A stretch of DNA of 64,000 bases, from contig PEAN01000015.1 in the NCBI GenBank assembly GCA_002753735.1, positions 1-64,000 on the forward strand, written 5' to 3'. A model generated the notes under the pieces. That model did not search any database, was not told the origin of the DNA, and saw only the letters and a program-made list of their open reading frames with translations. Shown one piece after another: positions 28,575 through 41,952 of the stretch. The DNA comes from Magnetococcales bacterium DCbin4. GTDB taxonomy: Bacteria; Pseudomonadota; Magnetococcia; Magnetococcales; UBA8363. Every line of letters begins with the position of its first letter. The stretch's first letter is position 1. The position numbers and the translations under genes are program-made.

Positions 28575-30014
28575 ATGAAAAAATTCCATTTGACGGCTGC
28601 CAATGGCCACCCCATCTCCGACAATCAGAACACGATGACTGCCGGTGCCCGGGGACCCGCACTGTTGCAGGATTGGTGGCTGCTTGAAAAACTGGCCCAC
28701 TTTGCCCGCGAGCGCATCCCGGAACGGGTCGTGCATGCCAAGGGATCGGGAGCCTTTGGTACACTGAAGATTACCCATGATCTGACCCGTTACAGCAAGG
28801 CCAATGTTTTTTCCGAAATCGGCAAGGAAACCCCGGCGTTCGTCCGTTTTTCCACCGTGGCTGGGGAGCGGGGTGCGGCCGATGCGGAGCGGGATGTCCG
28901 GGGGTTTGCCGTAAAGTTCTACACGCAAGAGGGTAATTGGGATATCGTGGGCAACAACACTCCGGTTTTTTTCTTGCGTGATCCCTTGAAATTTCCCGAT
29001 TTCATCCATAGCCAGAAACGCGACCCCAAGACCCATCTGCGTTCCAATGTAGCGGCATGGGATTTTTGGACCCGTCATCCGGAATCGTTGCATCAGGTGA
29101 CCATCCTCATGTCCGACCGGGGGATTCCCCAGAATTTGCGTCAGATGCATGGCTTTGGCAGCCATACCTACAGTTTCATCAATGCGACCAATGAACGGTT
29201 CTGGGTGAAATTTCATTTCAAGTCCAAGCAGGGGATCGCCAATTGGACCGATGCAGAGGCGGCCCGGGTGGTGGCAAAGGATCGTGAATCGTCCCAGAGG
29301 GATCTTTTCGAGGCCATTGAACGGGGAGATTTTCCCCAGTGGCGTTTTTGCGTGCAGATCATGCCGGAGCGCGAAGCTGAGACATATCACCTCAATCCCT
29401 TCGATCTGACCAAGGTATGGCCCCATGCCGATTATCCGCTGATGGAGGTGGGGGTATTGGAATTGAACAGGAATCCGGAAAATTATTTTGCGGATGTGGA
29501 ACAGGCTGCCTTCACCCCTGCCAATCTGGTGCCCGGTATTTCAACCTCTCCCGACAAAATGCTCCAGGGACGGTTGTTTTCCTACGGTGATGCCCATCGT
29601 TACCGTTTGGGGATCAACCATCACCAGATTCCGGTCAACGCGCCACGTTGTCCATTTGCGCGAATTTTCCATCGGGATGGGGCGACACGGGTGGATGGCA
29701 ACCAGGGTGGAATGGTGAATTATCAGCCCAATCGTTTTGGAGAATTCGAGGAAGATCTTTCCGCAGCCGAGCCACCCTCAAGCCTGAATGGTACCGCTGA
29801 TCGCCACGACCATCGGGAGGATACGGATTATTACAGCCAACCCGGTGCATTATATCGTTTGATGTCAAGCGAACGGCAACAGCAACTTTGTGGCAATATT
29901 GCACGTCATATCCAGGGGGTACCCTCGGAGATCGTTTCCCATGCACTGGTGCATTTCCGCAAGGCGGATCCCGCCTATGGGGCGGGCGTCGAAGCGGCGA
30001 TCAAGGCTTTGTGA
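28575..30014 (+). CDS. katA: Monofunctional haem catalase, small-subunit type
   Basis: The 479-residue catalase splits hydrogen peroxide in the cytoplasm. The distal histidine is in [11 protein letters not shown], the distal Asn in [12 protein letters not shown], the [10 protein letters not shown] signature is intact, and the proximal haem tyrosine is in [15 protein letters not shown] use ATG 28575 with AGGAC eight bases upstream; the frame extends to 28464 through the operator and is not translated there. Rubrerythrin follows after 30 bases, so both probably form a peroxide-defence operon. A degraded copy of this gene's last 75 or so bases occurs at 34934. Confidence 0.96.
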
Positions 30015-30044
30015 GGTTCTGTCGTTTACACGTCAAGGAGATCC

Positions 30045-30551
30045 ATGAATATGAAGACCAAAGACAATTTGAAAGCGGCTTTTGCTGGCGAGAGCCAGGC
30101 CAACCGTAAATATCTGGCCTTTGCCAAGAAGGCGGAACAGGAGGGATATCCGGTGATTGCCCATCTGTTCCGGGCGGTGGCCGAGGCGGAAACCGTTCAT
30201 GCCCATGCCCATTTGCGCAATCTGGGGGGGATTGGTGATACGCTGACCAACCTGCGCGAAGCCAAAGCGGGCGAGGATTACGAGATCAGTCAGATGTATC
30301 CCGACATGGTGGCGACCGCCGAAGCGGAGGGGGAAACGCGGGCCGCCCAGGGAATGCGCCATGCACTGGCGGTGGAAAAGGTCCACAGTGTTCTTTACGG
30401 CCAGGCAATCGCTGCCCTGGAAGCGGGAAAGGATCTGGATCACGATCTTTTGCATGTCTGTGAAATCTGCGGCCATACCGTCTTCGGCGAACCCGAGGGG
30501 AAATGTCCCATCTGTGGTGCAAAGCAGAGTTCCTATAAGAAAGTGGCGTAA
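30045..30551 (+). CDS. rbr: Rubrerythrin
   Basis: The 168-residue protein is a non-haem di-iron peroxidase with a C-terminal rubredoxin-like domain. The four-helix part has the Glu and His ligands (GESQANRKY, EAETVHAHAH, EVE-like VEKVHSVLY), and the iron-binding cysteine pairs are CEICGH and CPICGA. AAGGAG precedes the ATG. It reduces peroxide with electrons from a rubredoxin-type donor and is common in anaerobic or microaerophilic bacteria. It partners with katA upstream. A scar copy of its last 75 bases lies at 35043-35117. Confidence 0.95.
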   Translation: MNMKTKDNLKAAFAGESQANRKYLAFAKKAEQEGYPVIAHLFRAVAEAETVHAHAHLRNLGGIGDTLTNLREAKAGEDYEISQMYPDMVATAEAEGETRAAQGMRHALAVEKVHSVLYGQAIAALEAGKDLDHDLLHVCEICGHTVFGEPEGKCPICGAKQSSYKKVA

Positions 30552-34776: not shown

Positions 34777-34933
34777 TATCGGATCGCCGTTATTTGAAAG
34801 AGTATCGGCAAATATATCAAGACATGTGAAACATCGTCAAGTTGGCAAAGCCTGTCGCATCAAGGAAGTCAGCAGGCCGTAAACATTCAGTCTGCGTCGG
34901 ATGTATGGTATCGGCGGTCATACCCATATGTTG

Positions 34934-35117
34934 CCCATGCACTGGTGCATTTCATCAAGGCGGATCCGACCTGTGGGGCGGGCGTCGAAGCGGCGATCAA
35001 GGCTTTATTGGGTTCTGTCGTTTACCCGTCAAGAAAAATCCATACCGTCTTCGGCGAACCCGAGGGGAAAGGTCCCATCTGTGGTGCAAAGCAGAGTTCC
35101 TATGAAAAGGTGGCGTA
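34934..35117 (+). pseudogene. Scar copy of katA 3' end fused to rubrerythrin 3' end
   Basis: 34934-35042 matches the end of katA and the spacer up to the rubrerythrin start (29938-30045) with about ten differences; the katA TGA is changed. At the bases CCAT the match jumps to 30473-30551, the rubredoxin end of rbr. The same CCAT occurs at both breakpoints in the intact locus, so the inner part of rbr was probably lost by microhomology deletion. One rubredoxin Cys codon (TGT) is GGT here. An open frame of 63 codons crosses the junction, but it has no credible function. The remnant ends 45 bases from the STAND NTPase gene. Confidence 0.9.
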
Positions 35118-35161: not shown

Positions 35162-38100
35162 TCATGATGATTTTAAATTGTTTACGCCCTGGTTGGCAGG
35201 CTCCGGGGGACTGGGCTTTCTGGTAGAAACATCAATGACGATGACTTGAATGGAATACCTGGGGGTTGAAACAATGGTCTGATGCAATGCTTCTTCAAGC
35301 TCCTGACAAGTTGAAGGTGTTTTTTTGCCACGCTTCTTTGGAGGTACTTGTAGTCCACGTCCATGCGCTCCGAACCAGAAAACCAAATAAATACCGAACC
35401 CCTTCGTTTTTGGATCACGAACATAATTGGGAATCAACTGATCGTCCGCAGCGTTCCAAAGCTGGTCATGATCATCGCGTTTGATCTCAATTGGTATACT
35501 TATGTTTTCAAAACATATTTTGATATCGGCTCGCTTGTCATCCGCATAATGGCCTTCTGGATCGGAATGAATCTTCATTGGAGAAAGAGATGTGCGCAAT
35601 CTTTCCAACAGGCGATCCCGTCCGTCCTCTTCAGGAATCGGGCATGTCGTTCGTCCGTGAGCGTCCAGATTCCAGAAGGATTTGTAGCCATCCGTATTTC
35701 CATCCCTTAGTTCCCTGGCGATGGTGCGAAGGTGATCTACAACCAAAGCTTGAAGATCTGCCGCTGTGGCCGGGGAATGGTTATTGACCACGTTGACAAC
35801 GTTCTCCCATGTTGTGGGTTCGAATAATTTGTCGGCCTTTTTCTGGAGATGTTGGGCCAGGGAATGGCGAAGCTTATTGCGCCATGCAATGAGATTCTCG
35901 TCATCAATGAGCGATTGCAAGACAGTGGTGGCCTCTTCCGTTGTTTCTGCGGCAATTTTATTGATCAACTCTTTGATACATTGTGATCTCATATATTCTG
36001 GTTCACTCCATCCAACTCCATCTCCGATATCTTTTGGAGTGTAGATTTTTCCATAGAAAAGGATCAGATCAATAATGGTTGTAATGTTTAATGATAATCC
36101 CGGTATTTTATTCTCTCTTTCCTTGTTATCCTGATAGAAAATATCAAAAATAAAATCAAATAAAACACCGGCATCCTCTATTTCCAAAGAAAGAATGGGT
36201 TCGATTTCCGGCCATTTGAACTCTTCAAGAAGGTACGCAACGGCTGCCCACTGCGGCCAGCCTGGAATGTGATCCTTCTTTCTGCGATGAACCATTAATA
36301 TTAATGATTTCAACTCAGAACGATCCCCCCATATCAAGGCTGAAATTAATAGATTTGTTAAGTTGTTTCCTTTCATCTCTGGGCAATCCGCCAATAGAGG
36401 AATTGCAACTCTTTTGGCGATACCAGGCCATGTTTCAAGAGCATCCAATCTTCTGACATATTCCCTTCCAAATTTCAATTGTGGAAGCCAAAACTCTTTG
36501 GATGCGTGTGCAGCCAAGTCCGGATTCGTTGTGATAATATTTTCAAACCATTGAGGAATATGATCATTAGAGCCACGTAATAGCCACAAGGCGAAAGCTG
36601 AAGATAGCGTTGCATCGGAAAGTGTTTTCTTATCTCCAACGCTGATCAAGTCCATTGCTGATAAGATGACAGGAGCATATTTTGATTCATTGTAAGCGAT
36701 ACATTGCCTGCCAATTTCATCTGGTGAAGGGAGTGCATGGGTCATCAAGCATTGTACAAATCCTGCTTCTGCTGCCAGGGCAATCTCAATGGAGGTTTTT
36801 TCAACCAGACGCTGGTGCGGTTTTGTTGTTTTTATTGCATCCATGGACCAACTTTGATAGATTTCTGCAAGATCGAAAATTGCAATGAGATCCGTTCCAT
36901 TCCGAATACCATCAAGTCGGCGGGACAGGTCAGAAATATATTTATCTTTTTCTTTTTTTCTATTTAATTCCGACTCCATTCTCATTTGAGAAAATTTAAT
37001 AGTATCTTCATCTAATATGGAAAATAAAAATGGATCAAGATGCTGTTTGAACCGTGGGAATTTCCCAACAAAAATGAAGGCTCGGTCCAGCCAATGTGAT
37101 TCGGTTTGTTGCTGAATTAATAGTTTGATTCCAATCCGAAACATCGCTGCGGCAATACGCTCATCCTGGTTTTCCACGGCCAATTCTAAACACCAGTCTG
37201 CAAACCATGAGGGAGCTTCCATGTTTTGCAACAGCAGCCAAAAAAAATAGGTAGATTTTTCGATGTCTCCTGCGTCTTTTCTTTGTAACCAATATAAATA
37301 GAGTTTCTTGACTTTCTGAGGGTGAGAATTCATCCAGTTTTGTACTCGGGTTGCATGTGATTTTTTTCGATTATGATCAAGAATATTATGACCATGTTTG
37401 TCGATTACAACCTGCAACCATGTATACAGGTCTTCGAGCGAAACAGTTTCTCCATGTTGTTCCAGTGACCGGGATAATATCTCTCCTGCAAGATACTTGA
37501 AAGCTGAAGATGCCGTATGATCTCCATGGAATCCATTTTTAATATCCAATATGACCATTATGAGAGATGGTAATAATTCATCATTGGTTTTCTTGGGAAG
37601 TTTATGAGTCAAAAATTGATAATAGTAACCAAAATAATTGGCAAGTGGTGGAACAAGAAAGCGTGCAATTTCCCTGGGTGGCAAATGCTCAGGATACAAC
37701 TTTTCTAAAAGAATAGCACGAAATTCATGGTCACCATTTTGATCTTCGTTTCCTTCCAACCCTTCAAGAACTGGTATCAAATCCTTCATTCGATTTGCAA
37801 AGTGGGTGGCAAATATCTTTGTGGCGTGTTCTCGAAGATGAGATGGAACAGTTGGGTTGTTGATGAATGCGAACAGGGTATCTGAGGAAACAATAGGTCC
37901 TTTTCCATGCTGAATGATATCCAGAACTGTTATCAGCAGGTGAGTTGGTACATGTTGCCAATCAGATAAGATGGACTCAAATCGATCTTTCAATTTTGGA
38001 TCTGCAAGTCGTCCAAGTGGGTGACTTTCCCAGTGGCCTCCACGGAACCAGGGATTTTTCTTTGCCAACTCGGCAAGTCCATCCAAAATATTTTCTTTTC

Positions 38101-39262
38101 GGGATAAGGGTAGTGATTCGGGATCACCATACAGGATCAGCCCCATGGGGTCTGTATGGATGAATGAAGAAATGACCGAGTCGGGGCAGAGTGTGGTGAC
38201 CCAGGCGTGCAATCCGCGCAGGTGGGAAGGAACCAGTCCGTTTTTTGATGTCAGAAGATGGCGCACCCGCCCAGCCGGAAGTCCGTGATCGATCTGATGA
38301 ACCAGAAAATGGGCTGCTAAATATTCCGCCATCGTGCGATGATAATACGAAACGCGTTCAGGGGCGGGATTTCGGAAAAGTTTGGTTTGAGCCGCCTGCT
38401 TCAAGGGAAGGGGGGATCCATCAACTTGTGTCAGGTCGGGGAATCCTTCTTCATCGTAACCAACATCAAATGCAATTCCGGCAAGATCGGCGCGAAGGAT
38501 CAGGGTACACAACAACCCGGCAGCCAGGATTAGCTGGTCTGATGAAGGGGGGGCTGTCATCGCTTTACGGTGGGTCTTATTGTGTTCTTTAACCAACTTT
38601 GAACATGTGCGTTCAAACAACGCTTTGCGGGTTACCGGCCATTCCTGTCCCTGAGATACGACTTCCAACACCATTTCCAGACTTTGTGGATTGGTGATCC
38701 AATCAGCGATACCTGACTGTCTTGCCTGTTTCAGGAACGCCTGTCCATCAGGTACGCCTCTTTTTTCTATGATTTCCAGAATCTGCTCTTCGGAAAGTGG
38801 TTCCAGGCGAATAACGGTGACCTTCCCTGATTGTGAAGCTTCGCTGAGGTTGCTTTTGTCCAAATCGCCGAACCAATCTGCTGTGCGGCAGGAGAGGCGG
38901 AATTTGGGGGGATTAAATTCTTGCAAACGTCCAATGATGGCATCTAGAGCTTCATTGCCGTTTGCTTTTCCGGCTCGATGTTCATCCAGGCCGTCCAGGT
39001 AGAGGGTTCTTCCCTCAAGTCCTTGAGGATTTCTCGGGGGACAGAACTCCCGGATCGTCAGGTACTTCGCATGTTCTTCTTCTATGGCGGCCTGACAGAA
39101 ACTGGTGGTCTTGCCCATACCGGGCTCACCAAGAACGACCAGTGCCGGTTCAGAAAAAAACGCGGAGATCGGTCTTGGATTGTTTTCTTTTCCATTTTGT
39201 TCATCTACGCGGGAAAAGAGGCGAGGGACAATAATGCGATTGATATCATTCATACAAGCCAT
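35162..39262 (-). CDS. STAND/NACHT-like NTPase with probable C-terminal PD-(D/E)XK nuclease
   Basis: This 1366-residue protein has an N-terminal P-loop NTPase with Walker A GEPGMGKTT (45-53) and an acidic Walker B LYLDGLDEH (87-95), as in NACHT/AAA-type STAND ATPases, then a winged-helix-like part (to about 340). The long middle (about 350-1190) is helical and may be HEAT- or TPR-like repeats. The end holds RADIKI (D1246) and PIEIKR (E1259, K1261), a good PD-(D/E)XK core. STAND NTPases joined to nucleases are known antiphage proteins; a C-terminal nuclease would be the reverse of the usual Avs order. The gene is visibly more AT-rich than its neighbours, with many AAT/ATA codons, suggesting transfer. 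It stands alone. Confidence 0.78.
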   Translation of the reverse strand: MACMNDINRIIVPRLFSRVDEQNGKENNPRPISAFFSEPALVVLGEPGMGKTTSFCQAAIEEEHAKYLTIREFCPPRNPQGLEGRTLYLDGLDEHRAGKANGNEALDAIIGRLQEFNPPKFRLSCRTADWFGDLDKSNLSEASQSGKVTVIRLEPLSEEQILEIIEKRGVPDGQAFLKQARQSGIADWITNPQSLEMVLEVVSQGQEWPVTRKALFERTCSKLVKEHNKTHRKAMTAPPSSDQLILAAGLLCTLILRADLAGIAFDVGYDEEGFPDLTQVDGSPLPLKQAAQTKLFRNPAPERVSYYHRTMAEYLAAHFLVHQIDHGLPAGRVRHLLTSKNGLVPSHLRGLHAWVTTLCPDSVISSFIHTDPMGLILYGDPESLPLSRKENILDGLAELAKKNPWFRGGHWESHPLGRLADPKLKDRFESILSDWQHVPTHLLITVLDIIQHGKGPIVSSDTLFAFINNPTVPSHLREHATKIFATHFANRMKDLIPVLEGLEGNEDQNGDHEFRAILLEKLYPEHLPPREIARFLVPPLANYFGYYYQFLTHKLPKKTNDELLPSLIMVILDIKNGFHGDHTASSAFKYLAGEILSRSLEQHGETVSLEDLYTWLQVVIDKHGHNILDHNRKKSHATRVQNWMNSHPQKVKKLYLYWLQRKDAGDIEKSTYFFWLLLQNMEAPSWFADWCLELAVENQDERIAAAMFRIGIKLLIQQQTESHWLDRAFIFVGKFPRFKQHLDPFLFSILDEDTIKFSQMRMESELNRKKEKDKYISDLSRRLDGIRNGTDLIAIFDLAEIYQSWSMDAIKTTKPHQRLVEKTSIEIALAAEAGFVQCLMTHALPSPDEIGRQCIAYNESKYAPVILSAMDLISVGDKKTLSDATLSSAFALWLLRGSNDHIPQWFENIITTNPDLAAHASKEFWLPQLKFGREYVRRLDALETWPGIAKRVAIPLLADCPEMKGNNLTNLLISALIWGDRSELKSLILMVHRRKKDHIPGWPQWAAVAYLLEEFKWPEIEPILSLEIEDAGVLFDFIFDIFYQDNKERENKIPGLSLNITTIIDLILFYGKIYTPKDIGDGVGWSEPEYMRSQCIKELINKIAAETTEEATTVLQSLIDDENLIAWRNKLRHSLAQHLQKKADKLFEPTTWENVVNVVNNHSPATAADLQALVVDHLRTIARELRDGNTDGYKSFWNLDAHGRTTCPIPEEDGRDRLLERLRTSLSPMKIHSDPEGHYADDKRADIKICFENISIPIEIKRDDHDQLWNAADDQLIPNYVRDPKTKGFGIYLVFWFGAHGRGLQVPPKKRGKKTPSTCQELEEALHQTIVSTPRYSIQVIVIDVSTRKPSPPEPANQGVNNLKSS

Positions 39263-39957
39263 AAGTGTCTCAGGAACGTGAGTGGAGCAAGAGAGGCATC
39301 AATGATTGTAATTTCAAGAATGCACCACAGACAGGAACCGGGTGATCGGCACAAGTTTCTTGCCGGACACCCTTTCTGCAATGTATTTCGTTTGTCGGCA
39401 TCGGATCATGCAGGGAGGTTGGCGTGGAGCGCAAGTTGAGCTTGTTTTTCTTATGGATTCGTTTGTTGAAGGTAGGTGTGTAGAAATAAGAAGTACAGTA
39501 TAAGGTTATTGATAACTGTATAATTGTATCAAGAACGATAACAGGTTTGCAATGTGAACCATTTCAGCATGAAAGTCATTGCATGCTCATGGTTAAGGTT
39601 ATGCAATATATAATAAATATAATTAAACATGGTTGTTCTGTGAAAGATCTGATCAACTTGCTCGATGAAAACATCAAATGGAATTGACCTGCATTTTGTA
39701 TGTATCTGCCCGATAGGTCATGAAGGGAGTCTTGCGCCTGACCAGAGAAGATCAATCCCTTGCTGTGTGAGTCAGGAAAGGTTGACATTTCTTGAATCAG
39801 GTGTACCTTTAATTGAAATGCTGTTTAAAGCATATCTGAAGGTAGGCTTGATTTGTACATTTTTTTCAAATATTATTTATATAATTGTGCGATAAAATAA
39901 CTGTATGATAGAGTCTCGCGTGAGTAATATAAATAAACATAAGTTAACCATACCGAC
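39263..39957. other. AT-rich intergenic region without recognised gene
   Basis: There are 695 bases between the divergent NTPase and chemoreceptor genes. The right two thirds are very AT-rich. Short frames of 70-76 codons exist on both strands (39576-39788 minus, 39665-39895 plus), but they lack ribosome sites and any similarity I know. Promoters for both flanking genes must lie here, though I could not pick them with confidence. Confidence 0.5.
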
Positions 39958-41952
39958 ATGACGCAATCCGCCTCAGCCACGGCCACGTTTTGGAATATTC
40001 GGACAAAGATTCTTCTGCCGATCTTGTCGATCCTTGCCATCGGTTTGACGTTGGTGGGTTGGATATCGTTTTGGGTGGCACGGGATGCGGTGACCGACAG
40101 TGCGATGCTGTCCATGCGTAACACCCTGGAAAAAAAGGTACAACAGGCGGAGGCGTTTCATGCCAAGGCCAGGAGCGATCTGCTTTTGGCAATGGAACAT
40201 CGGGTGTTTGCCGATTATTTCAATTTGGCGGAGGTCCGGGCGGGCAACCGGTATGATGCCCAAAAGGTCATTCAGTTCACCGAACGGCAGCGGGCATTGA
40301 AAGATGTCATGGATCAGTGGGTTTTGTCATTGCAACGACGGTTTCCCATCGTCGAGACCTGCGTGATTGATGCGACCGGCCAGGAACACATGCGGATTAC
40401 TCAGGGGGAAATCGCCCCGGACAGCGATTTTTCCAGCGAGGAGAATGGTGCCGATTTTTTCGCCCCGACATTTGCCCAGGCTACGGGGACGGTGTACATC
40501 AATCCCCCCTATATGTCGGTGGATGCGCGCCAGTGGGTTTTTTCCTATACCTCTCCCATCGCCCTGGAAGATGGTTCCCGTCCCGCCTTTTTCCATTATG
40601 AAGTGCCGGTATCCCTGTTCCAGGACCTCCTTAAAGAAGGGGGAACGGAACGGGATGCTGGCGTTCGGGTAAAGGCGAAACGCTTCATTCTGGTCGATCA
40701 GGAAGGTTTGCTCATCGGAGATAGTTCCCAAGCGATTCCACTGGACCTGAAAGCGGGGGATGATCCTGAAAAGGGGGTGGCATTGTCCAATTACCTGCCG
40801 TCCATGGAGCTACTGAGCGAAGATCCCGAATGGAAGGAACTTGCGGCACGCATGCGTACCGGGGAGCGCGGTGAAGGCCATTTTTTGATCAACGGCGTGT
40901 CGCATTACATGGTGTTCATGCCCCTTCCCACGTTTGGCTGGGGGATGGGACACATCATGTCGGAGGCGGATCTGTTTGAGGGACGATCTTCGTTGCAGCG
41001 GATTCGCATGGTCATCATCGCGGCGGCGGTTGGGGCGTTGTTGGTCGCGGGCATGGTGATTCTGGGGGTCGCGAGCCATCTGACCCGCCCGTTGCGGGAA
41101 TGCCGCAATCTGTTCGGACGGATTTCCGAAGGCTACTTGAGTATTTCCTGTGAAACGACGCGCCGGGATGAGATCGGCGCGTTGTTGCGTGCCCTGGGGC
41201 TGATGGCCAATCGGTTGCGGGAGGTGGTGACCCTGGTCGGCAATTCCACAGCACGGGTCAGCAGTGGCAGTGCTGAACTCAAGAATTCCAGCCATACGGT
41301 GTCGGAAGGGGCGGTGGAACAGGCCGCTTCCATGGAGGATATTTCCGCTGCGATGAAGCAGATGACGTCCCATATCCGTCGTAACAATGAAAATGCCCAA
41401 CAAACCGAGGCTTTGGCCCGTAATGCGGCGCATACCGCGACCCGGGGTGGGAACTCGGTACGCATGGCGGAAGAGGCGATGGAGCGGATTTCCAATCACA
41501 TTACCTTGATTGGGGAGATTGCCCGGCAGACCGACCTGTTGGCACTCAATGCCGCCATCGAGGCGGCACGGGCGGGAGAACATGGCAGGGGATTCGCCGT
41601 GGTGGCGACTGAAGTGCGCAAACTTGCGGAACGCTCCCAGGAAGCGGCCTCTGAGATTATCCGCCTGTCCCATACCAGTCTGACGACCGCTCAGGATGCC
41701 AGTCGGATCATGAACCGTCTGGTCCCTGAAATTGGATCGACCGCTCAACAACTTCAAGAGATTGCCCAGGCCAGCAACGAACAAAAGGAACATGCGGAAC
41801 GCATCGATCTTTCAATTCGGAACCTGGATGAGGTGATTCAAAAAAATGCGGCCGCAGCGGAAGAGATGTCGGCCACTTCGGAGGATCTGGCCGCCACCGC
41901 CACTTCTTTGCACCAGGCCATGGACTTTTTCAAAATTGAATCCCAATCCTGA
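39958..41952 (+). CDS. Methyl-accepting chemotaxis protein
   Basis: The 664-residue receptor has a membrane helix at about 15-38, a periplasmic sensor region of about 300 residues (dCache-like, with [19 protein letters not shown] and [13 protein letters not shown]), a second helix ([19 protein letters not shown]), HAMP, and the cytoplasmic signalling tip around [20 protein letters not shown]. It would bind a small ligand and control CheA. No CheW-binding partner is adjacent, but cheA and cheR are within this window. No clear ribosome site precedes the ATG. There is no C-terminal NWETF pentapeptide. Confidence 0.94.

What the first reader, a model, noticed from the sequence alone, without database searches (positions are those of the whole stretch)
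35162..39262. Large NACHT-like NTPase with nuclease at the C-terminus
A Walker A/B STAND-type ATPase at the N-terminus, about 800 residues of helical sequence, and a D...E-x-K nuclease core at residues 1246-1261. Described Avs-type proteins carry the effector first and the sensor last, so the reversed order may define another class. The gene is alone and AT-rich compared with both flanks, as expected for a mobile defence gene.
Basis: partly seen in the sequence, partly recalled or inferred. Interest (0 to 1): 0.72.

Follow-up and report, generated by a model that had tools for sequence, protein, structure and literature searches.

The report
NACHT defence protein with C-terminal nuclease
A single bacterial gene encodes a relative of animal NOD-like immune receptors whose DNA-cutting part sits at the far end of the protein; it is very probably an anti-virus defence protein close to an already named family, EruA.

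Summary
The 1366-residue gene at 35162-39262 (-) encodes a NACHT ATPase with no room for an N-terminal effector, a long variable helical solenoid, and a C-terminal PD-(D/E)XK-type nuclease. An AlphaFold model matches NLRC4, NOD2 and NLRP3 over its first ~450-480 residues (Z 15-17). The C-terminal model has the PD-(D/E)XK core, though with only middling structural scores (Z up to 7.8). The order recurs: of 33 genomes found by an N-terminal profile, 28 carry an intact protein with the nuclease last.

It is not a new class. NCBIfam already names EruA, 'NACHT domain-containing antiphage protein' (full-length match, 920.6 bits, below its cut-off of 1000); HyoA shares the order. C-terminal effectors on STAND ATPases are in print for GT4 domains (PMC8195603), and one EruA/HyoA-like protein has GT4 in the nuclease's place. 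The gene is compositionally foreign and solitary here. Most likely a solenoid senses infection, the NACHT oligomerises, and the nuclease cuts DNA; no activity was tested.

The parts
35162..39262 (-). EruA-like gene, 1366 aa
   Evidence: NF058535 920.6 bits full length
37913..39262 (-). NACHT module, residues 1-~450; no N-terminal effector
   Evidence: AlphaFold model; NLRC4 Z 16.9 over 1-458, NOD2 15.3, NLRP3 15.2
39107..39130 (-). Walker A GEPGMGKT, residues 45-52
   Evidence: sequence; G48, G50, K51 invariant in 17
38981..39004 (-). Walker B LYLDGLDE, residues 87-94
   Evidence: D90, D93, E94 invariant in 17
35813..37912 (-). HEAT/ARM-like helical solenoid, residues ~451-1150, fast-evolving, proposed sensor
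   Evidence: all-helical model; importin/CAND1-like rows at Z 8-11, a level that helical repeats can reach without kinship; pairwise identity 0.24-0.46 per 50-residue bin among 6 Magnetococcales proteins against 0.49-0.73 in residues 1-450
35222..35647 (-). PD-(D/E)XK nuclease domain, residues ~1206-1347
   Evidence: nuclease HMM 170 bits, a profile that includes this sequence; model; structural rows
35630..35632 (-). E1211 on the first core helix
   Evidence: invariant 45 of 45
35525..35527 (-). D1246, predicted metal ligand
   Evidence: invariant 45 of 45
35480..35488 (-). E1259-x-K1261, predicted catalytic pair on the third core strand
   Evidence: invariant 45 of 45; strand 190-198 of the model
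35438..35440 (-). Q1275 on the following helix
   Evidence: invariant 45 of 45
39263..39957 (.). Intergenic stretch upstream of the gene; no clear promoter excess or RNA structure
   Evidence: 39001-40000 has GC 0.418

Best explanation
An EruA-like antiphage protein acting as a one-protein sensor-effector. Shown by sequence and models: NACHT ATPase at the N-terminus, variable solenoid in the middle, conserved PD-(D/E)XK-type domain at the C-terminus. Inferred: in the resting state the NACHT holds ADP; a phage product, or a host change caused by infection, binds the variable solenoid; ADP/ATP exchange makes the NACHT oligomerise; this pairs or uncovers the C-terminal nucleases, which need the D1246/E1259/K1261 metal site to cut DNA (phage, host, or both), stopping phage production, probably with death or dormancy of the cell. 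Because the nuclease sits about 750 residues beyond the NACHT module instead of directly in front of it, activation probably goes through the solenoid (release from autoinhibition, or contact between neighbours) and not through clustering of N-terminal domains as in Avs/bNACHT proteins.
For: NCBIfam full-length match to 'NACHT domain-containing antiphage protein EruA'. NACHT module supported by structure: in the first 24 of 50 rows, 21 titles name an NLR protein and three are chains of the oocyte cytoplasmic lattice, which I recall contains NLRPs. PD-(D/E)XK core order with D just before strand 2 and E-x-K in strand 3; 44 of 50 structural rows are PD-(D/E)XK enzymes by my recalled classification. 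Catalytic residues invariant in 45 of 45. Both ends conserved, middle variable. Effector replaced by a GT4 domain at the same end in one protein. Foreign composition; different neighbours in relatives; type I restriction genes adjacent in two; a copy between phage head genes.
Against: The score is under the EruA cut-off (920.6 against 1000). No phage, ATPase or DNase test of this protein is known to me, and I could not find the paper behind the name EruA. The nuclease fold matches are middling: Z at most 7.8, a level the tool warns can be chance; Foldseek none at E<=0.001, its list mixing restriction enzymes with unrelated folds. No PDB sequence match beyond chance. No clear defence gene among the 8 neighbours scanned. 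Trigger, oligomeric state and DNA target are unknown.
Confidence: 0.68

Rival explanations
1. The nuclease end is itself the invader detector: the protein is a restriction-like device that recognises particular DNA (ends, forks, modified or plasmid DNA) through the nuclease and solenoid, and the NACHT is an ATP-driven clamp or switch rather than a receptor for a phage protein.
For: Weak PADLOC match of residues 1113-1267 to LmuA of Lamassu (E 2.2e-4), seen in 4 of 17 homologues at E<=0.01, as is mad8 in 4 of 17 (best E 2.4e-4); structural rows include restriction enzymes, McrBC and SduA; two relatives sit beside type I restriction genes.
Against: The middle solenoid is the most variable part, which fits a receptor in an arms race better; the N-terminus matches NLR receptors strongly.
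Confidence: 0.2
2. The C-terminal fold binds DNA or holds subunits together but does not cut; harm is done otherwise, for example by ATP turnover.
For: No activity data; fold scores below Z 8.
Against: E1211, D1246, E1259, K1261 and Q1275 are kept in 45 of 45 sequences, some only 18-20% identical to the window's C-terminus; in one protein the domain is replaced by another enzyme, GT4.
Confidence: 0.05
3. A regulatory or housekeeping STAND ATPase not concerned with phages.
For: In this window and in G004 the gene lies among ordinary genes.
Against: Patchy spread (34 of 398 genomes of the phylum draw, HyoA-like ones included; full length in 3 of the 8 genomes of the genus, some of which are only 74-78% complete), foreign composition, changing neighbours, plasmid and phage-contig copies, NCBIfam antiphage name.
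Confidence: 0.07

Closest known systems
EruA (NCBIfam NF058535, 'NACHT domain-containing antiphage protein EruA')
   Same: Full-length match, residues 23-1346 to model 9-1318 of 1318, E 2.2e-276; same three-part order; the window protein falls inside the 23-row branch of the tree that holds the rows above the cut-off.
   Different: 920.6 bits, under the curated cut-off of 1000; five full-length relatives from the same order are also below it, 815-920 bits.
HyoA (NCBIfam NF058534)
   Same: NACHT first, nuclease of the same type last; catalytic residues shared.
   Different: 1430 model positions, separate branch; the window protein matches it only in part, best stretch 137-781, 173 bits.
bNACHT25/bNACHT32 and Avs proteins
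   Same: NACHT/STAND ATPase driving a PD-(D/E)XK DNase in phage defence (bNACHT25/32: PMC12169576, passages; Avs recalled).
   Different: There the nuclease is N-terminal and the sensor C-terminal; here nothing precedes the NACHT and the nuclease is last.
STAND-GT4 fusions (PMC8195603)
   Same: Effector placed C-terminally on STAND NTPases including NACHT (passages); Rhizobium plasmid protein L083 links the two.
   Different: Effector is a GT4 glycosyltransferase, not a nuclease.
Lamassu LmuA (PADLOC PDLC03853)
   Same: Weak match over the pre-nuclease helices and first half of the nuclease.
   Different: No SMC-like partner gene seen; the match is marginal.

Membership tests
EruA equivalog (NF058535) | Score at or above the curated cut-off of 1000 bits | tested here: not met
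   920.6 bits; filed therefore as EruA-like, not as an EruA equivalog
EruA equivalog (NF058535) | Match over the whole model in one stretch | tested here: met
   23-1346 to 9-1318 of 1318
EruA equivalog (NF058535) | Phage protection | not testable with these tools
   needs an assay
HyoA (NF058534) | Score at or above 1200 bits | tested here: not met
   173.1 bits, partial
NACHT clade of STAND NTPases | Walker A, Walker B with D-G-h-D-E (recalled motif), NLR-type NACHT fold | tested here: met
   motifs invariant; NLRC4/NOD2/NLRP3 Z 15-17; Pfam NACHT in 8 of 17 homologues at E<=0.01, but not in the window protein itself
PD-(D/E)XK nuclease superfamily | Core of helix, three strands, helix, strand with D and (D/E)xK in place (recalled) | tested here: met
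   model pLDDT 81.5, order of elements
PD-(D/E)XK nuclease superfamily | Catalytic residues conserved | tested here: met
   45 of 45
PD-(D/E)XK nuclease superfamily | Clear match to a solved member | tested here: inconclusive
   Foldseek none at E<=0.001; Z up to 7.8; profile search of PDB sequences only chance hits
PD-(D/E)XK nuclease superfamily | Cuts nucleic acid | not testable with these tools
   needs an assay
Avs / bNACHT with N-terminal effector | Effector domain N-terminal to the NTPase | tested here: not met
   Walker A at residue 45; NLR match starts at residue 1
Lamassu LmuA | SMC-like LmuB partner gene next to it | tested here: not met
   none among 8 neighbours scanned with PADLOC

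The most novel reading that the evidence does not exclude
EruA-like, HyoA-like and GT4-bearing proteins are one superclass of NLR-like receptors whose exchangeable effector slot is the C-terminus, beyond the sensor, and whose activation works by transmission along the solenoid instead of clustering of N-terminal effectors.
Probability: 0.45. Interest if true: 0.65.

Novelty: new member of a known kind. Interest (0 to 1): 0.42.

Why it matters
Described bacterial NLR-like proteins carry the killer domain in front and the sensor behind. EruA-like proteins invert this, so the question of how a NACHT switch turns on an effector some 750 residues away is directly testable with one gene and a few point mutants. 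The variable solenoid and constant ends also tell where to look for the trigger.

Tried and rejected
Categorically new class: rejected because NCBIfam names two antiphage families of this order and C-terminal effectors on STAND proteins are in print.

Stand-alone use of the nuclease: five C-terminus-only hits were looked at. G017 and G113 are cut by contig ends. The Duffyella hit lies in a 1040-aa open frame at the start of a circular record. G005 (same genus) is not cut by the contig end: an open frame with residues 1093-1351 (53% identity, catalytic residues present) is bounded upstream by two in-frame stops about 180 bases from the contig end, with nothing EruA-like before them (one search had missed it because I kept only the three longest ORFs of that stretch). 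Azospirillum B510 has a 289-aa annotated gene of the same extent. Decayed remnant or true solo nuclease: undecided.

Frequency of the GT4 swap: a family search with PF20706 rang in 244 of 398 genomes and 13 of 14 controls, i.e. mostly ordinary glycosyltransferases by my reading, and says nothing. The swap rests on one protein inspected (L083); four further records (H28-H31, also annotated as glycosyltransferase) match over the same N-terminal stretch and were not inspected.

The EruA model at a loose E<=0.001 also rings weakly at two other places of this genome and in 2 of 14 control genomes; at E<=1e-20 in none of the 14. PDB searches by sequence gave only chance hits. A DNA search of E. coli genomes with one above-cut-off EruA gene found nothing. 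Upstream RNA structure (z -0.46) and promoter count (13 against 9.5, sd 3.0) were negative. Empty-site comparison failed: the neighbour genes are not next to EruA in the relatives examined, and of 20 relatives searched only 3 have a full-length CRP/rhodanese-like gene; the DNA flank search gave many short matches, which I read as conserved chemotaxis sequence.

Literature: 'EruA'/'HyoA' returned 20 papers, none on phage defence by title or abstract start (one uses EruA for a SlyA-family regulator, PMC12839154, listing only); 'Eru'/'Hyo' occur in none of the 40 of 387 papers shown. The listings show no title or abstract start about a NACHT with a C-terminal nuclease; I did not open most of those papers. 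Kibby 2023 and Gao 2022 (recalled) are not held.
Full report
What is there. The ORF 35162-39262 (-) is intact, 1366 aa. Pfam gives only weak hits for the window protein, none below E 0.04, but NCBIfam gives a full-length match to NF058535, 'NACHT domain-containing antiphage protein EruA': E 2.2e-276, 920.6 bits, residues 23-1346 against 9-1318 of 1318; curated cut-off 1000. HyoA (NF058534) matches in part, 173 bits. PADLOC gives one weak hit, to LmuA. The genome is a 4.5-Mb assembly in 148 contigs; the only two relatives found in the named genome collection by short peptide patterns are Magnetococcales MAG contigs at 50% identity.

Anatomy, N-terminus. An AlphaFold model of residues 1-1200 (9 sequences, pLDDT 78.8, pTM 0.67) matches NLRC4 (Z 16.9, 390 residues, rmsd 4.5), NOD2 (15.3) and NLRP3 (15.2), beginning at residue 1. 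In the first 24 of 50 rows 21 titles name an NLR and three are chains of the oocyte cytoplasmic lattice (recalled to contain NLRPs). Many later rows are HEAT/ARM proteins aligned from about residue 385 on, at Z 8-11, which the tool says helical repeats can reach without kinship. So the NACHT module starts the protein. Of 42 proteins with the nuclease (window included), three open frames lack the N-terminus (L051, L079, L084); in the other 39 the Walker A starts between residues 34 and 79 (32 by pattern, six at 46-54 and L121 near 68 on looking again), so none has room for an N-terminal effector domain.

Anatomy, C-terminus. The model of residues 1065-1352 (11 sequences, pLDDT 81.5, pTM 0.75) has helix (with E1211), strand, strand (D1246 just before it), strand (E1259, K1261 in it), helix (Q1275), strand: the PD-(D/E)XK core as I know it. 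Foldseek against the PDB gave nothing at E<=0.001; the best is the restriction enzyme PspGI at 0.13, and the list mixes nucleases with unrelated folds. The second look by VIA-align gave BglII Z 7.8, Can2 7.2, OkrAI 6.8, EcoT38I 6.5, McrBC 6.1, EcoRV 5.9 and others. By my recalled classification 44 of 50 rows are PD-(D/E)XK enzymes (13 are EcoRV, 7 Can2, 5 BspD6I entries; the HerA-DUF and SfsA rows are the least sure); six are not (ERAP2, two Rep15, a designed repeat, Gea2, AP-2). Single Z values of this size can be chance; the recurrence of one superfamily, the topology and the residues together make the case.

Conservation. D1246, E1259 and K1261 are invariant in 17 full-length homologues, some only 17% identical, in 25 C-termini including 5 HyoA-like ones, and in 45 of 45 C-termini (44 distinct) together with E1211, E1236, Q1275, Y1280 and G1290. 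Those 45 were chosen as hits at E<1e-5 of a nuclease profile built from alignment A2 (42) plus three added by hand, so this is not a random sample. Left out of alignments: L022 (internal stop), L006 and L007 (the same DNA as L005 and L004), L001 (the window itself), and contig-edge fragments.

Order in relatives. The least biased test is the search with an N-terminal profile only (A6): 33 of 398 genomes match at E<=1e-15 (three candidates scored per genome). Of these, 28 have an intact protein ending in the nuclease; 16 of the 28 were themselves rows of the profile, 12 were not, and all 12 have the nuclease. The other five: G260 is cut short before the nuclease beside an ORF that I read as an integrase; G393 has an internal TAA; G256 and G044 are contig-edge fragments; G022 is a distant protein with many WD40 repeats. 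Outside this set one plasmid protein, L083 of a Rhizobium tumour-inducing plasmid, has EruA/HyoA-like sequence at 37-813 and a GT4-conflict domain (PF20706, E 8.9e-113) at 1242-1630 in place of the nuclease.

Where it varies. Among six Magnetococcales proteins mean pairwise identity is 0.49-0.73 per 50-residue bin in residues 1-450, 0.24-0.46 in 451-1150, 0.53-0.60 in 1151-1300, 0.41 in 1301-1350 and 0.03 in the last 16. Constant ends and a variable middle fit engine, sensor and effector.

Spread and setting. A match to the EruA model at E<=1e-20 is present in 34 of 398 genomes of the phylum draw, 9 above cut-off; several of the 34 are HyoA-like or fragments. In the genus, 3 of 8 genomes have it full length and G005 has a C-terminal piece. 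Plasmids: 45 of 72,556 records match some part, 2 over at least 80% in one place. Phage records: 1 of 50,697, in part. Viral contigs: six loci and two further contigs. In one, L039, the gene lies between portal, minor head and neck genes on one side and head maturation protease, major head and tail sheath genes on the other, consistent with travel as phage cargo. Of the four relatives with flanks examined, G045 and G003 have type I restriction genes next to it, in G003 with the start apparently overlapping the end of the specificity-subunit gene; among the neighbours scanned, three in G004 and one in G014, PADLOC found none, and G004's neighbours are ordinary. None of the four shares the window's neighbours apart from a partial match of the chemotaxis-type protein in G014. 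GC 0.444 against 0.555 agrees with import.

Tree. A quick maximum-likelihood tree of 38 full-length proteins puts the window protein with the other five from its order (6 rows, support 100), within a larger branch of 12 (support 92) that also holds L021, which is above the EruA cut-off; the other above-cut-off rows lie in a neighbouring branch of the same 23-row side. The cut-off therefore does not separate the window protein from EruA by descent, but as a tested feature it is not met, so I file it as EruA-like. The tree is a short search, rooted at the midpoint, with several long rows.

Literature. PMC12169576 (passages): STAND proteins have sensor C-terminal and effector N-terminal, and bNACHT25/32 carry an N-terminal PD-(D/E)XK DNase whose active site is required. 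PMC8195603 (passages): GT4 domains are often fused C-terminally to STAND modules including NACHT. PMC13092281 (passages): of 31 further validated E. coli systems 13 have PD-(D/E)XK domains and 7 P-loop NTPases; I saw there no protein I could identify as EruA. PMC7159879 (passages) was also looked at. The publication behind the names EruA and HyoA was not found, so whether its authors describe the C-terminal nuclease is unknown to me.

Judgement. The reading as a new class is not supported; it is an EruA-like protein from an order whose six full-length copies scored here (window included) all fall under the named family's cut-off. What remains open, and interesting, is how the switch works in this order of parts.

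Noticed in passing
34930-35117: Just downstream of the gene lies a scar: a copy of the 3' end of the gene I read as catalase (29934-30046, 89-90% identical) joined to a copy of the 3' end of the gene I read as rubrerythrin (30473-30550, 95%), with the part between missing. It may be a donor flank that came in with the defence gene, or a local duplication.
   Followed up: partly
L083 4917-9827: Rhizobium plasmid protein of 1637 aa with EruA/HyoA-like NACHT and solenoid but a GT4-conflict glycosyltransferase in the nuclease's place.
   Followed up: partly
L132 17251-18045 (-) and L050 5926-6795: Two short genes holding only the pre-nuclease helices and nuclease (window residues ~1086-1355), catalytic residues intact, one in the same genus and one on an Azospirillum plasmid; remnants or solo nucleases.
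   Followed up: partly
L039 5950-9972: EruA-like gene within the head and neck gene block of a phage contig with a tail sheath.
   Followed up: partly
L077 2392-5658 (-): EruA-like gene cut off before its nuclease, next to an ORF I read as an integrase at 1120-2403; a naturally nuclease-less allele.
   Followed up: no
L118 2391-7889 (-): Another genome of the same order has an 1833-aa protein with many WD40 repeats whose N-terminal part matches the EruA/HyoA NACHT profile distantly.
   Followed up: no
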